A stretch of 64,000 bases of DNA from Planctomycetota bacterium. GTDB lineage: Bacteria > Planctomycetota > UBA1135 > GCA-002686595. This document shows, one piece after another, positions 10,464 through 16,008 of this stretch (position 1 is its first letter; every line of letters begins with the position of its first letter). Below the pieces are notes generated by a model. That model did no database searches. It saw nothing but the letters and a program-made list of their open reading frames with translations, and was not told the DNA's origin. Location of the stretch: the NCBI GenBank assembly GCA_016872795.1, contig VGYZ01000004.1:25486-89485 (forward strand). Direction: 5' to 3'. Position numbers and translations under genes: made by a program.

Positions 10464-11564
10464 TCACGGCAGCTCGGAGCGCTTCCGACCGCAGGCTTCG
10501 CAGAAGCGCGCGTGCGCTGCGAGTGCGGCGCCACAGCCTGCGCAGAAACCCGAGGGAACGGAGGCGAGGGCCTCACCGCAAGCGCCGCAGAACTTGCCGG
10601 GCGCGACCTGTGCGCCGCACTTTTGGCAGCTGACCTTGGCGCTCGCGGACTCCCCTGCCACGGGGCGCGGCGCCTGCATCATCTGCTGCGCCAAGCCCAG
10701 ACCGACGCCCAGCCCCGCGCCGCCGAGCAGTCCGCCGCCAGCGCCGCCTTCGCCGCCCCCCTTGGCCATGCCTTCCCCCGCGCCCAGCATGGCCTTGCCG
10801 GCCGCGAAGCGCTGGAAGTTGTCCACGCCGCCCACGGCGCGCAGGTAGGCCGCGTCCGTGTAGAGCTTCTTGAGGTTGACTGCATCCGGCTCGGAGATCG
10901 CGACCACGAAGTTGCCCAGACGCGGGATGACGAGGCCGTACGAAGCGCAGTGGGATCCGACGCCCGCGAGCACATCGGCCTCGATTTCCTCCGTGTACGC
11001 GCCGGAGGTCACATCGAGCAGCGGCCACTTGTTCTTCACCACGAGCTCGGCGACGCGGTCGCGGATCACCTTGAGTACCTGCTCCCGCAGCCACGCCGAG
11101 ACCTGCGCCGGAGCGCCGCCGCCCATGCCGACGAGGCCGACGATCAATCGATCCGGATCGCTCACGCGGAAGGAAAACTCCCCGTGCACCATCGTCTCGA
11201 CCGGCACGCCAGACTTGGGGTCTTCGACGTTGCCGACGCGGCCGCCGAACTTCTGGCCGACCTGCTCGGTCATGCTCACGAAGAACACCTCGGCGATGAA
11301 CACGCGGCCGCCGGTGAACGAGTCGACGAGGTTCGAGAGGAAGGGCAGGTTGGCGCTGTCGAGCGTGTGGCGCCCGGGGCCGAGCGTCGCGACCACCTTG
11401 CCGTCGCGGAAGAACACGCAGCGCTCGTCCGACTCGACGGTGAGCTGCGACTTCATCGGAATCGTCGGATCCGGGTGCTTCCAGACGATCTGTACCTTGG
11501 CCTCGTCGGGCCGCGCGATCATCAGCTCGCCCACACCGCGCTTCAGCCAGTCCATCACGCCCAT
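10464..11564 (-). CDS. SPFH-domain (virion core-like) protein with C-terminal double zinc ribbon
   Basis: MGVMDWLKRGVGELMIARPDEAKVQIVWKHPDPTIPMKSQLTVESDERCVFFRDGKVV...; C-terminal CQKCGAQVAPGKFCGACGEAL and FCAGCGAALAAHARFCEACG. Confidence 0.85.
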   Translation of the reverse strand: MGVMDWLKRGVGELMIARPDEAKVQIVWKHPDPTIPMKSQLTVESDERCVFFRDGKVVATLGPGRHTLDSANLPFLSNLVDSFTGGRVFIAEVFFVSMTEQVGQKFGGRVGNVEDPKSGVPVETMVHGEFSFRVSDPDRLIVGLVGMGGGAPAQVSAWLREQVLKVIRDRVAELVVKNKWPLLDVTSGAYTEEIEADVLAGVGSHCASYGLVIPRLGNFVVAISEPDAVNLKKLYTDAAYLRAVGGVDNFQRFAAGKAMLGAGEGMAKGGGEGGAGGGLLGGAGLGVGLGLAQQMMQAPRPVAGESASAKVSCQKCGAQVAPGKFCGACGEALASVPSGFCAGCGAALAAHARFCEACGRKRSELP

Positions 11565-11681: not shown

Positions 11682-12371
11682 TCAACGCACGCGCTGGTTC
11701 TTCTCGTAGAAGCCAGTGAAGCGCGCGTCGGGCGCGCCCTCTTCGTCGAAGAAGCGCCACGCCCCTTCGCGAGCGTTGTTCAGGTAGCTGCCCTCGGCCA
11801 TGAGCTGCCCGTTCTCGTGCCAGTACTTCCACGGCCCTTCGTTCTGCCCGCGGTGCAAGAGCCCCTCGTAGCGTTTGCGGCCGTTGGCGTGGTACTCGAC
11901 CCAGTCGCCCTCGCGCAGGCCGGACGCAAAATCGCCCTCACGCAGCAGCACGCCCCGCTCGTCGAAGTAGCGCCAATGGCCGCCCAGCTTGCCCTCGTCG
12001 TCGTAGGCGCCTTCGCAGCGCAACTGGCCGTTCTCGAACCAAATCTTCATCGGTCCCACGCGGGTGGACGCGCCCTGCTCGCCGAGACGCTCGCTGCGTT
12101 CCGTGAAGAGCCCACCGTTGGGATGGAACTCGCGCACGCGGACGAGCGCACCGGGCCCTGCATCGGCGGGTTCCTGCACGCGCGCGATGCCCGGAGTCAC
12201 CGCCGGCACAGCGGGGCGCTCGAGCGCCGTCGAGTCGAGCGCCGCGTGGGCGGGTGGAACGAGCACGGACTGCGCCGGCACCGGCGTGTCCATGGGCGCG
12301 GGCTCGCCCGGCCCACAGCCGACGGCCCAACAGCACGCGCACGCGCACGCGAATTTTCGAATGTAGTTCAT
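11682..12371 (-). CDS. Lipoprotein with YwqK/MORN-like repeats
   Basis: MNYIRKFACACACCWAVGC lipobox; repeats such as MKIWFENGQLRCEGAYDDEG, WRYFDERGVLLREGDF, WKYWHENGQLMAEGSYLN. ORF track start (12833) is too far upstream. Confidence 0.8.
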   Translation of the reverse strand: MNYIRKFACACACCWAVGCGPGEPAPMDTPVPAQSVLVPPAHAALDSTALERPAVPAVTPGIARVQEPADAGPGALVRVREFHPNGGLFTERSERLGEQGASTRVGPMKIWFENGQLRCEGAYDDEGKLGGHWRYFDERGVLLREGDFASGLREGDWVEYHANGRKRYEGLLHRGQNEGPWKYWHENGQLMAEGSYLNNAREGAWRFFDEEGAPDARFTGFYEKNQRVR

Positions 12372-12414
12372 GCCGCGGTCCGCCGGCCCCAGAGCGTAGC
12401 TCAACGCGCTGAGA

Positions 12415-13092
12415 TTGCAGCCCACCTTGTGCCCGGGCGCCGCCGCCAACTGCTCGCGCTCCTTGGCCAGCCCCACGACGACATCGCCCGCTCCCCCCCG
12501 ATCGCCGCTCCCCTGTCTCGACGCCGGTGGCCTCAAGCGACTCGAGTGGTTCAGAGTCGAGCTCGAAACGCCGGGCGCAACGGCGCGCCTCGCGCGAGCG
12601 CGGCTCGAGGATCGGCGTGGGCCGGCCCCTTCGACCTTCCTGCAAGGCGAACCCGCGCTCACGCGTGAACCCCTGCCCGAGGGCGAGCTCACGGTCGAGG
12701 CCCAGTGGCACGGTTCCCGCCAGCGCGCGCTCGTCTCCGCGTTGCGCGAGCTCCTGCCCGCGGGTCGTTGCACCGTGGAAGCGTCGCTCGGTCGCACCCC
12801 CATCTTCGCACGCGTCGGCCGCATCCTCGTCACGAGCCCAGCCGAGCCACATTCCGCGGCGCAGCGCCTGGAGGAGCCCGAGCTCCAGGTCTACTTCGAC
12901 CCCCGTCGGCCCGCGAAAGGCCAGCTCCTCGATGACGACGGCGAGAGCAGCGGGAACAGCACTTCGACCACGGACTTCAGCGCGCGCATCGCTCGCGGGC
13001 GCGTGCTGCTCGACGCCTTGTGCAACGGAATCGAAGTGGTCGACCGCGGCTGGCATGTGCACGCGCACGGCCTGCCGCAGGTCAAGGGCTGA
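12415..13092 (+). CDS. Hypothetical protein
   Basis: ORF with protein-like composition (LKRLEWFRVELETPG...FLQGEPALTREPLPEGELTVEAQWHGSRQRALVSALRELL...), divergent from the lipoprotein gene. No family recognised; start uncertain. Confidence 0.5.
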   Translation: MQPTLCPGAAANCSRSLASPTTTSPAPPRSPLPCLDAGGLKRLEWFRVELETPGATARLARARLEDRRGPAPSTFLQGEPALTREPLPEGELTVEAQWHGSRQRALVSALRELLPAGRCTVEASLGRTPIFARVGRILVTSPAEPHSAAQRLEEPELQVYFDPRRPAKGQLLDDDGESSGNSTSTTDFSARIARGRVLLDALCNGIEVVDRGWHVHAHGLPQVKG

Positions 13093-13672
13093 CGGCGTCG
13101 GACTCGTTCTCCGCGATCGACGGCAGCATCAGCCACGCATCGAACGCGGGGAACCCGTGCAGCGTGAGCGCGGCTCGCGCCACCACATGTTCTTCGTCCG
13201 CTTCGCGCGGAAAGGCTGGTGCAAAGCCCACTTTCAGGCCCTGACAGCCTTCCGAGCGCGTCGCCGTGCGGCGCGGGAACAGCTCCCGAATGGCGCAGTC
13301 GAACGAGCCGCCGATGAGATTGCCCACTTCGAGGAGCGCATCCTTCGTGGCGCGCTCCAGATCGCGATCCTTGCGGCGCGCCACGACCACATCGTCGGCC
13401 ATCATCATCAGGTAGCACGCCATCGCGATCGCTTCGGGCAACGGGACGAGCAACGCGCCGTGCCGCAGCGTTCCATCGATGGTCACGCCGAGGCGGAAAG
13501 CCACATGCACGACCTTCTCGCCCGCGACGCGCTGTCGCGCGCGCGCGACCTCGACCGCCCCGCATGTGAGCGGTCGGTCGAGCAGCATCGACAAATCCTC
13601 GGCGATCTTGGCGAAACATCGCTGCACCAGCTCGCGATCTGTGGCCTGCTGTCGTTCGAGAGTGGCCTGCAT
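13082..13672 (-). CDS. CheX/CheC-type chemotaxis phosphatase-like protein
   Basis: DALLEVGNLIGGSFDCAIREL carries the CheC/CheX D/SxxxExxN motif; lies in the che cluster. Confidence 0.7.
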   Translation of the reverse strand: MQATLERQQATDRELVQRCFAKIAEDLSMLLDRPLTCGAVEVARARQRVAGEKVVHVAFRLGVTIDGTLRHGALLVPLPEAIAMACYLMMMADDVVVARRKDRDLERATKDALLEVGNLIGGSFDCAIRELFPRRTATRSEGCQGLKVGFAPAFPREADEEHVVARAALTLHGFPAFDAWLMLPSIAENESDAVSP

Positions 13673-13684
13673 GTGTAGCGACTC

Positions 13685-14203
13685 CTAGGAATGAGGCGCG
13701 CCCTCGCATCGCCACAGTTCCACAGAGATGAGCCCCTGTTGCAAGCGATACACGAGCGCGCCGCACACGGGACCCGCAGGCTGCGCGCCGGCGTCCTTCA
13801 TGAACGGGATACTTAGGTCGAACGCGCCGAGTGGATCGAGCACGCGTGTCTTCACATGTCCGGTGATCATGTTGGCGCACTCCTTGAGCGCGTCGTTGAC
13901 TTCATCGACCGCCAGCGCCGTTTCGCCGTCGAGCATCAGCAGCCCGCGCGCGATGTCGTGCGCGCCGGACGCTGTGCAGCGAAACACGACCTGCCCAGAG
14001 ATCGCTCCGCGAAACTCGACGACCGCCTCGCGGTCGAAGCTCTCGCGCGCACCGCCGCGAGCGGCAGCGGCGACGGGGCTCCCGTGCTCGGCCAGCGCTT
14101 CGAACGCGCACACCATCGAGGAAAACACCTCGTCGACGGCACGCTCGAGCGCGGCGAGCAACTCCGCATCTCCCGGCAGAGAGCGCGTGGACGAATCAGC
14201 CAA
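13685..14203 (-). CDS. CheX-like chemotaxis phosphatase
   Basis: VVEFRGAISGQVVFRCTASGAHDIARGLLML...DEVNDALKECANMITGHVKTRVL (DxxxExxN). TTG start at 14203 overlapping cheY is inferred; ORF track gives 14272. Confidence 0.75.
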   Translation of the reverse strand: MADSSTRSLPGDAELLAALERAVDEVFSSMVCAFEALAEHGSPVAAAARGGARESFDREAVVEFRGAISGQVVFRCTASGAHDIARGLLMLDGETALAVDEVNDALKECANMITGHVKTRVLDPLGAFDLSIPFMKDAGAQPAGPVCGALVYRLQQGLISVELWRCEGAPHS

Positions 14204-14570
14204 GGTACGCCTCCAGCGCAGCGCGAATCGACTCGGGCGTGAAGGGCTTGGTGACATAGCCATTCGCTCCAAGAGCGAGCGCGTTGTTCATCATTGCCTC
14301 ACCGCCCTCGGTGGTGACCATGATCATCGGCAGCGCTTCTTTGGCGCGCGTCGCGCGCACCGCCTTGACGAAGTCGACGCCGTTCATCTCCGGCATGTTG
14401 ATGTCGGAGAGGATCAGGTCGATGTCGGGATCGCTCTGGAGTCTCGCCATGCCCTCGACGCCGTTGCCGGCCTCGACCACGCTGGCGCAGGGAATCTCGG
14501 CCTGGCGCAGGACACGGGTGATGATCTTCCGCATCGTGGCGGAGTCGTCGACGATCAGGACCTTGTTCAT
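14196..14570 (-). CDS. cheY: CheY-type response regulator
   Basis: MNKVLIVDDSATMRKIITRVLR...LILSDINMPEMNG...MIMVTTEGG...GYVTKPFTPE; all receiver residues present. Confidence 0.92.
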   Translation of the reverse strand: MNKVLIVDDSATMRKIITRVLRQAEIPCASVVEAGNGVEGMARLQSDPDIDLILSDINMPEMNGVDFVKAVRATRAKEALPMIMVTTEGGEAMMNNALALGANGYVTKPFTPESIRAALEAYLG

Positions 14571-14722
14571 CGTCTGGGTGCCCTCGTTGCTGGGGTTGTC
14601 GTGCGCGCCTTGGGCGAGCGGCCGCGAAGTGCGGCGCGCGCCGATCGGCGTGCACCCTTGGTCGGAGAGCGCCAGTTCAAGTCTGAAACATCGTTGCGGA
14701 AATCCGCAAGAAACCGACAGGT

Positions 14723-15184
14723 TCAGCGTGGGGCCGCGAAAACTTGCAGGCGCAGCGGCCAGCCACGGAACGCCAGACGCTCCTCGTGCAGGAGCGCGGC
14801 GTGATCGAGCGGCAGCTCGAGCGGCGCACGGCAGGGCAAGGCCAGCTCGCTGCGACCCGGCAACACGGCCTTCAGGTTGCCGCCGAAGATATTCACCAAC
14901 TCGAGGAGTGTCGCTTCGATCTCGCCAGCCGAGAGCTCACCGCGTTCCTTGCCGAGCAGGCTCGCTGCGAACTCGCGCGCGGTCCCTTGAGGACAGGAGA
15001 GCACGACAGCGCCGCACCAATCGCCGCAGATCGAGACGCAGAAGCGTTCGAGCACTTCCCCGTCGCAGCAAGCATCCGCAGCCAGGCTGAGATGCTCGCC
15101 CAGCGCCGCACTCCAGACCTGCTCGAACAGCGTCGAGATCGCTCGCGCGAGGTCCAGCCCGACGGGAGTCGAGGAGGCAGCCAT
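14723..15184 (-). CDS. CheX/CheC-like chemotaxis phosphatase
   Basis: MAASSTPVGLDLARAISTLFEQVWSAALG...GEIEATLLELVNIFGGNLKAVLPG (ExxN motif). ATG at 15184 overlaps the cheR stop. Confidence 0.7.
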   Translation of the reverse strand: MAASSTPVGLDLARAISTLFEQVWSAALGEHLSLAADACCDGEVLERFCVSICGDWCGAVVLSCPQGTAREFAASLLGKERGELSAGEIEATLLELVNIFGGNLKAVLPGRSELALPCRAPLELPLDHAALLHEERLAFRGWPLRLQVFAAPR

Positions 15185-16008
15185 CAGGCGGCCTTCAGGC
15201 GATAGCACGCCGTGTGGAGCGTGTCGGACGCAAAGTTGTCGTCGACATTGATGGTCGTCTCGGCAGTTCCGAGGAACAGGTACCCGTCGGGGCGCTGGAC
15301 GCGGCGCATGTTGCCGAGGATCGAGCGCTTCGTGGGCACATCGAAGTAGATCATCACATTGCGCAGCATGATGAGGTCGAAGGGCCCCATCGGCGGGTAG
15401 GTGCGCGCCGCAAGATTGAACTCGCGCCACTGGATCGACGAGCGCAGCTTGGCGTCGATCTGCCACTCGAGGCCCTGCTTGTGGAAGTACTTCACGAGCA
15501 GCGGAGCCGGAAGTCCGCGGTTCACCTCGAGCTGGCTGTAGAGCCCCTCGCGCGCCTTCGCGAGCACCTGCGTCGAGATGTCCGTCGCGAGGACTTCCAC
15601 GCGCCACATCGCCAGCTCCGGGAAGTTCTCGCGCAGGAGCATCGCCATCGAATACGGCTCTTGCCCGCTCGAGGCCGCCGCACACCAGATCGACAGACGC
15701 TTCTCGTTCCATCGGCGCTCGATCAGCTCGGGGAACACCTTGCGTTTCAGGTGTTCGAAGGGCTGCACATCGCGAAAGAACGAAGTTTCGTTGGTGGTCA
15801 TCGCGTCGATGACGCGCGTCAGCAAGGCAGGATCGCGCCGCGCGCGCAGCTCCGTGACAAGCACCGCGATCGATCCGAGCCCGAGCTGGTGCGCGACTGG
15901 CCCAAGGCGCGCCTCGACGAGGTACTCCTTGCCCGCATCGAGCACGATGGCGGCCTCCGTGCGGACAAGCTCGGTGACGAAACGGAAGTCTTCGGCGCTG
16001 ATCGCCAT
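15184..16008 (-). CDS. cheR: CheR-type protein-glutamate O-methyltransferase
   Basis: MAISAEDFRFVTELVRTEAAIVLDAGKEYLVEARL...TTNETSFFRD...WCAAASSGQEPYSMAMLL...NVMIYFD...GYLFLGTAET. Confidence 0.93.
   Translation of the reverse strand: MAISAEDFRFVTELVRTEAAIVLDAGKEYLVEARLGPVAHQLGLGSIAVLVTELRARRDPALLTRVIDAMTTNETSFFRDVQPFEHLKRKVFPELIERRWNEKRLSIWCAAASSGQEPYSMAMLLRENFPELAMWRVEVLATDISTQVLAKAREGLYSQLEVNRGLPAPLLVKYFHKQGLEWQIDAKLRSSIQWREFNLAARTYPPMGPFDLIMLRNVMIYFDVPTKRSILGNMRRVQRPDGYLFLGTAETTINVDDNFASDTLHTACYRLKAA

What the first reader, a model, noticed from the sequence alone, without database searches (positions are those of the whole stretch)
13082..15184. Three different CheX/CheC-type phosphatase-like proteins in one chemotaxis cluster
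Products at 13082-13672 (DALLEVGN), 13685-14203 (DALKECAN) and 14723-15184 (ATLLELVN) each keep the ExxN core of CheC/CheX/FliY phosphatases (established motif) but differ strongly elsewhere. They alternate with a stand-alone CheY. Three paralogous phosphatases with two CheYs suggests dedicated dephosphorylation of separate outputs (inference). I do not recognise this layout from textbook systems.
Basis: partly seen in the sequence, partly recalled or inferred. Interest (0 to 1): 0.6.

Follow-up and report, generated by a model that had tools for sequence, protein, structure and literature searches.

The report
Three old CheX lineages in chemotaxis operon
A lake planctomycete's chemotaxis operon carries three different predicted brakes for its motor-signalling proteins; they come from three anciently separate families, and one of them is an undescribed type that follows the flagellum more closely than chemotaxis itself.

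Summary
In a complete minus-strand che operon (cheA-W-Y1-B-R-X3-Y2-X2-X1) of a freshwater Planctomycetota MAG, three genes encode CheC/CheX/FliY-superfamily proteins. CheX2 and CheX3 pass the Pfam CheX cut-off (49 and 38 bits; cut-off 27). CheX1 does not (17.7 bits), but its AlphaFold model matches FliY, CheC and CheX. They are not recent duplicates: a tree puts them in three old lineages. Two modules meet here. CheX3 belongs to a cheA/cheY1/cheB/cheR cluster. cheY2-cheX2-cheX1 is a trio found across the phylum, elsewhere next to cheA, alone, or with X1 fused to a receiver or CBS domains. The three-CheX layout recurs in the genus, in genus g5 (G010) and in g56, so it is no artefact. Most unexpected is CheX1. 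It has a nearly invariant GCQG motif, keeps ExxN in most members, and is present in 59 of 64 FliG-positive versus 4 of 17 FliG-negative genomes of the family; among FliG-positive genomes it is independent of CheA. I infer two CheY outputs with their own phosphatases, CheX1 acting on the motor side. No enzymology was possible.

The parts
13082..13672 (-). CheX1: divergent CheC/CheX/FliY-fold protein, 196 aa; D111xxxE115xxN118, G142-C-Q-G145 motif, P152
   Evidence: Pfam CheX 17.7 bits, below cut-off; AF2 model and Foldseek to FliY/CheC/CheX/FliM; C143, Q144, G145 and P152 invariant in 35 family sequences
13685..14203 (-). CheX2: CheX phosphatase, 172 aa, TTG start overlapping the end of cheY2
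   Evidence: Pfam CheX 49.3 bits; family profile matches solved CheX 3hm4 at E 8e-16; D, E, N and P of the signature invariant in its alignment
14196..14570 (-). CheY2: stand-alone receiver, partner of the CheX2/CheX1 trio
   Evidence: Pfam Response_reg 96.7 bits; orthologues in trio loci of other genera, about 160-250 bits
14571..14722 (-). 152-base gap between cheX3 and cheY2, the junction of the two modules
   Evidence: ORF coordinates; no promoter or terminator found there by the simple scan
14723..15184 (-). CheX3: CheX phosphatase, 153 aa from ATG
   Evidence: Pfam CheX 38.4 bits; AF2 model matches CheX 1xko/6vpw; groups with CheX of cheA-cheB-cheR clusters in other families
15184..15999 (-). 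CheR methyltransferase
   Evidence: Pfam CheR 187.9 bits
16008..17111 (-). CheB methylesterase with receiver domain
   Evidence: Pfam CheB_methylest 216.6 bits; NCBIfam CheB 305 bits
17111..17491 (-). CheY1: stand-alone receiver; its start is uncertain (the ORF runs up to 17578)
   Evidence: Pfam Response_reg 91.9 bits
17520..17957 (-). CheW
   Evidence: Pfam CheW 102.5 bits
17977..20298 (-). CheA histidine kinase (5' end approximate)
   Evidence: Pfam Hpt, H-kinase_dim, HATPase_c and CheW domains

Best explanation
The locus is one chemotaxis operon built from two CheY/phosphatase modules. Module 1 is cheA-cheW-cheY1-cheB-cheR-cheX3, in which CheX3 removes phosphate from CheY1. Module 2 is cheY2-cheX2-cheX1, a trio common in the phylum, in which CheX2 removes phosphate from CheY2. 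CheX1 is a third, anciently separate CheC/CheX/FliY-fold lineage with one ExxN site and a nearly invariant GCQG motif; it most likely acts at the flagellar motor, dephosphorylating a motor-bound receiver or tuning the switch, because it is kept with the flagellum even where CheA has been lost. Shown: fold, linkage, ancestry, motif conservation and co-occurrence. Inferred: catalysis, the CheY assigned to each phosphatase, and the motor-side role of CheX1.
For: Pfam and structure matches. Tree: X1 is one clade (100/99), X3 groups with CheX of cheA-cheB-cheR clusters (95/94), X2 is separate. The trio is unlinked to cheA in other genera of the family and sits directly upstream of cheA in other families of the phylum. 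CheX3 clusters without the trio: G020, G429, G045, G047. Layout with all three in g56, with cheY1-cheX3 adjacent. CheX1 in 59 of 64 FliG+ and 4 of 17 FliG- genomes, Fisher p 4e-8; among FliG+ genomes 33/35 with CheA and 26/29 without, p 0.65. In genus g56 the two genomes with FliG and CheA have CheX1 and the five without lack it. The CheX catalytic mechanism (Asn orients water, acidic residue binds the receiver Lys) is established: PMC3035606.
Against: No enzymology and no CheX-CheY specificity data. CheX3 is dispensable: deleted in the close relative G003 and not found in G460. Some CheX1 copies lost the catalytic Asn (G007, G019, G023, G024, G027, one copy in G015), so part of the family may be non-catalytic. 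Genomes are incomplete MAGs, and Fisher's test ignores relatedness. CheX1 is not located in flagellar gene clusters in the loci I read.
Confidence: 0.6

Rival explanations
1. Plain redundancy: all three proteins dephosphorylate the same CheY pool and differ only in strength or localisation, with no dedicated outputs.
For: All three share the fold and the ExxN site; CheX3 is lost in G003 and not found in G460.
Against: Three old lineages rather than duplicates; the trio travels with its own CheY2; CheX1 outlives CheA.
Confidence: 0.25
2. CheX1 is not a phosphatase but a scaffold or motor part that kept the fold, as FliM did, or a pseudo-enzyme that senses CheY2-P. (This competes only with the CheX1 part of the best explanation.)
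For: Best fold matches include FliY and FliM; it tracks FliG and not CheA; some copies lack Asn118 while Cys143-Gln144 stay invariant.
Against: E115 and N118 are kept in most copies, including those in most CheA-less genomes; the genome has its own, divergent FliM.
Confidence: 0.3
3. The locus is a CheC-CheD type adaptation system, with CheX1 in the place of CheC.
For: CheC (1xkr, 2f9z) is among the best fold matches of CheX1.
Against: No CheD is found in this genome or in five of six congeners searched; CheX1 carries a single ExxN motif, where CheC carries two.
Confidence: 0.05

Closest known systems
CheX of Thermotoga, Borrelia and Desulfovibrio (Pfam PF13690)
   Same: CheX2 and CheX3: family score over cut-off, fold, ExxN site, place beside CheY
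   Different: Two members in one operon, each in its own CheY module; Geobacter genomes carry one cheX each (PMC2577667), flagellated Desulfuromonas three per genome (PMC8235581)
CheC and FliY (two-site CheC-type phosphatases; FliY sits in the flagellar switch)
   Same: Best Foldseek matches of CheX1; link to the flagellum
   Different: CheX1 has one ExxN site, no FliN domain, no CheD partner in this genome, and a GCQG motif
Campylobacterota CheX with conserved neighbours (PMC9321776)
   Same: A CheX kept at a fixed place away from the main che cluster
   Different: Different phylum and neighbours; no trio with CheY and a second CheX-like protein reported in the passages read

Membership tests
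CheX (PF13690) for CheX2 | Score over Pfam gathering cut-off | tested here: met
   49.3 bits against 27
CheX (PF13690) for CheX2 | [D/S]xxxExxN plus downstream Pro | tested here: met
   D, E, N and P of the signature invariant in 15 relatives (D105, E109, N112, P134 in the numbering)
CheX (PF13690) for CheX3 | Score over Pfam gathering cut-off and CheX fold | tested here: met
   38.4 bits; Foldseek to CheX 1xko/6vpw
CheX (PF13690) for CheX3 | [D/S] four residues before the catalytic Glu | tested here: not met
   Ala in this protein (ATLLELVN), Ser in some relatives; the catalytic Glu and Asn are kept
CheX (PF13690) for CheX1 | Score over Pfam gathering cut-off | tested here: not met
   17.7 bits against 27
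CheC/CheX/FliY superfamily for CheX1 | Superfamily fold | tested here: met
   AF2 pLDDT 83, Foldseek probability 1.00 to FliY, CheC, CheX and FliM
CheC/CheX/FliY superfamily for CheX1 | Catalytic ExxN | tested here: met
   E115/N118 in this protein and most relatives
CheC for CheX1 | Two ExxN sites and CheD partner | tested here: not met
   One motif; no CheD in the genome
FliY for CheX1 | C-terminal FliN domain | tested here: not met
   196 aa, no FliMN_C match
CheC-type phosphatases, all three | CheY-P phosphatase activity | not testable with these tools
   Needs purified proteins

The most novel reading that the evidence does not exclude
CheX1 founds a previously undescribed branch of the CheC/CheX/FliY superfamily, present in several families of Planctomycetota, that works at the flagellar motor independently of chemotaxis. 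It is kept by flagellated species without CheA and, in other families, fused to receiver or CBS domains that would feed it phosphorylation or nucleotide signals.
Probability: 0.4. Interest if true: 0.65.

Novelty: new variant of a known kind. Interest (0 to 1): 0.45.

Why it matters
CheC-type phosphatases set how quickly a motor signal is erased. Here one operon holds three lineages and two CheYs, which gives a natural test of whether phosphatases are wired to particular response regulators. A branch that survives with flagella after CheA is gone would show that this fold has a motor-side job beyond chemotaxis, in a phylum whose flagellar control I found no literature on in the library searched.

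Tried and rejected
Recent gene duplication: rejected by the tree. Assembly artefact: rejected, because the layout recurs in independent MAGs. CheX1 standing in for a missing FliM: Pfam FliM fails in the genus, but a divergent FliM with a FliMN_C domain lies in the flagellar cluster, so no replacement is needed. CheC-CheD system: no CheD. Sequence searches of PDB with CheX1 gave no significant match. Conserved neighbours of stand-alone CheX1 (panB, an S1-domain gene, an ECF sigma factor and an RseB-like gene) look like chromosomal context and gave no function. No CheX1 match on plasmids. The paper searches found no work on Planctomycetota CheX, DUF3334, a half-remembered neighbour of CheX, had no literature, and the CheC-phosphatase review of Muff and Ordal is not held.

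Full report
What is there. The window comes from a Planctomycetota MAG (3.78 Mb, 162 contigs, 91% complete); its close relatives in the species collection are Planctomycetota MAGs, several with lake names in their records. On the minus strand lies a complete che operon, read 5' to 3' as cheA, cheW, cheY1, cheB, cheR, cheX3, cheY2, cheX2, cheX1. The genome has one CheA, one detected chemoreceptor, no detected CheD and a flagellar cluster with FliG and a divergent FliM.

The observation. All three ORFs are at the stated places with the stated motifs. CheX2 and CheX3 pass the curated Pfam CheX cut-off; CheX1 does not. With six relatives, AlphaFold gives CheX1 a confident model (pLDDT 83) whose best solved matches are FliY, CheC, CheX and FliM middle domains. 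CheX3 gives CheX as its best match. A profile of the CheX2 family reaches solved CheX structures at E 8e-16. So all three are members of the superfamily, CheX1 as a distant one.

Conservation of the layout. The linked triplet occurs in the other species of the genus, except G003, where cheX3 has been deleted, and in G010 of genus g5. In genus g56 (G432, G433) the order is cheA, cheW, cheB, cheR, cheY1, cheX3, cheY2, cheX2, cheX1, which puts CheX3 directly after CheY1. In the second g5 genome, G460, no cheX3 was found.

Two modules. Clusters with cheA and cheX3 but no CheX2/CheX1 occur in G020 and G429 of the same family and in G045 and G047 of other families. The cheY2-cheX2-cheX1 trio occurs without cheA nearby in G008, G009, G017, G029 and G031; in G032 CheX2 and CheX1 are one reading frame. 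In other families of the phylum, cheY-cheX-X1 lies directly upstream of cheA in most loci read, and X1 is fused to a receiver domain or to a CBS pair. In some order-level relatives X1 with a degenerate receiver-like tail follows a sigma-factor gene, with or without cheY and cheX. The 152-base gap between cheX3 and cheY2 marks the joint in the window.

Ancestry. In a tree of 94 sequences CheX1 and its phylum-wide relatives form one group (100/99), the focal CheX3 another (100/99), which joins CheX of cheA-cheB-cheR clusters (95/94), and CheX2 lies elsewhere. The alignment has long branches, so finer branching is unsure; the separation of X1 and X3 from X2 is strong. They are not recent duplicates.

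The CheX1 family. It has an invariant Cys-Gln-Gly (GCQG in nearly all) and Pro152, and E115/N118 in most members. In 81 genomes of the family CheX1 is found in 59 of 64 with FliG and 4 of 17 without it (p 4e-8). Among genomes with FliG it does not depend on CheA (33 of 35 with, 26 of 29 without, p 0.65). In genus g56 it is present in the two species with FliG and absent in the five without. The test ignores relatedness and some genomes are incomplete (the CheX1+/FliG- cases G440, G019 and G458 are 77-80% complete).

Mechanism. In CheC/CheX/FliY phosphatases an Asn enters the receiver active site and orients water for attack on the aspartyl phosphate, and an acidic residue binds the receiver lysine (PMC3035606). 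CheX2 and CheX3 keep these residues and the fold, so CheY-P phosphatase activity is the expected function. From linkage I assign CheX3 to CheY1 and CheX2 to CheY2. CheX1 keeps the same residues in the window, but its persistence without CheA points to a role at the motor. These assignments are inferences.

Assessment. The finding is real and somewhat more interesting than first described, not because of three phosphatases as such but because one of them is an undescribed, flagellum-linked branch. It remains a variant of a known kind of system.

Noticed in passing
L109:8939-10318 (G000 contig C87): A fourth, ordinary CheX in the genome, away from any che gene and next to a phosphate-transporter-like gene; orthologues in the other species of the genus.
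   Followed up: partly
L160:5258-6436 (G000 contig C1): FliM is so divergent in this family that Pfam FliM misses or barely sees it, while its FliMN_C domain (68 bits) is clear.
   Followed up: partly
L142, L149, L150 (X1 with receiver); L141, L148 (X1 with CBS pair): CheX1 relatives in other families are fused to a receiver domain or a CBS pair, between cheX and cheA or next to cheX.
   Followed up: partly
L097:8890-9990: CheX2 and CheX1 fused in one reading frame (G032).
   Followed up: no
L105, L106, L108, L144, L146, L152, L157: An X1 gene with receiver-like tail follows a sigma-70 family sigma factor gene; in L105, L106, L108 and L146 with cheY between.
   Followed up: no
L071:13587-16124: The cheA of the close relative G003 is split by an in-frame TAG, besides the loss of cheX3.
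   Followed up: no
window 11682-12698 and 10464-11564: Downstream of the operon lie a MORN-repeat protein and an SPFH/Band-7 protein with zinc ribbons.
   Followed up: no
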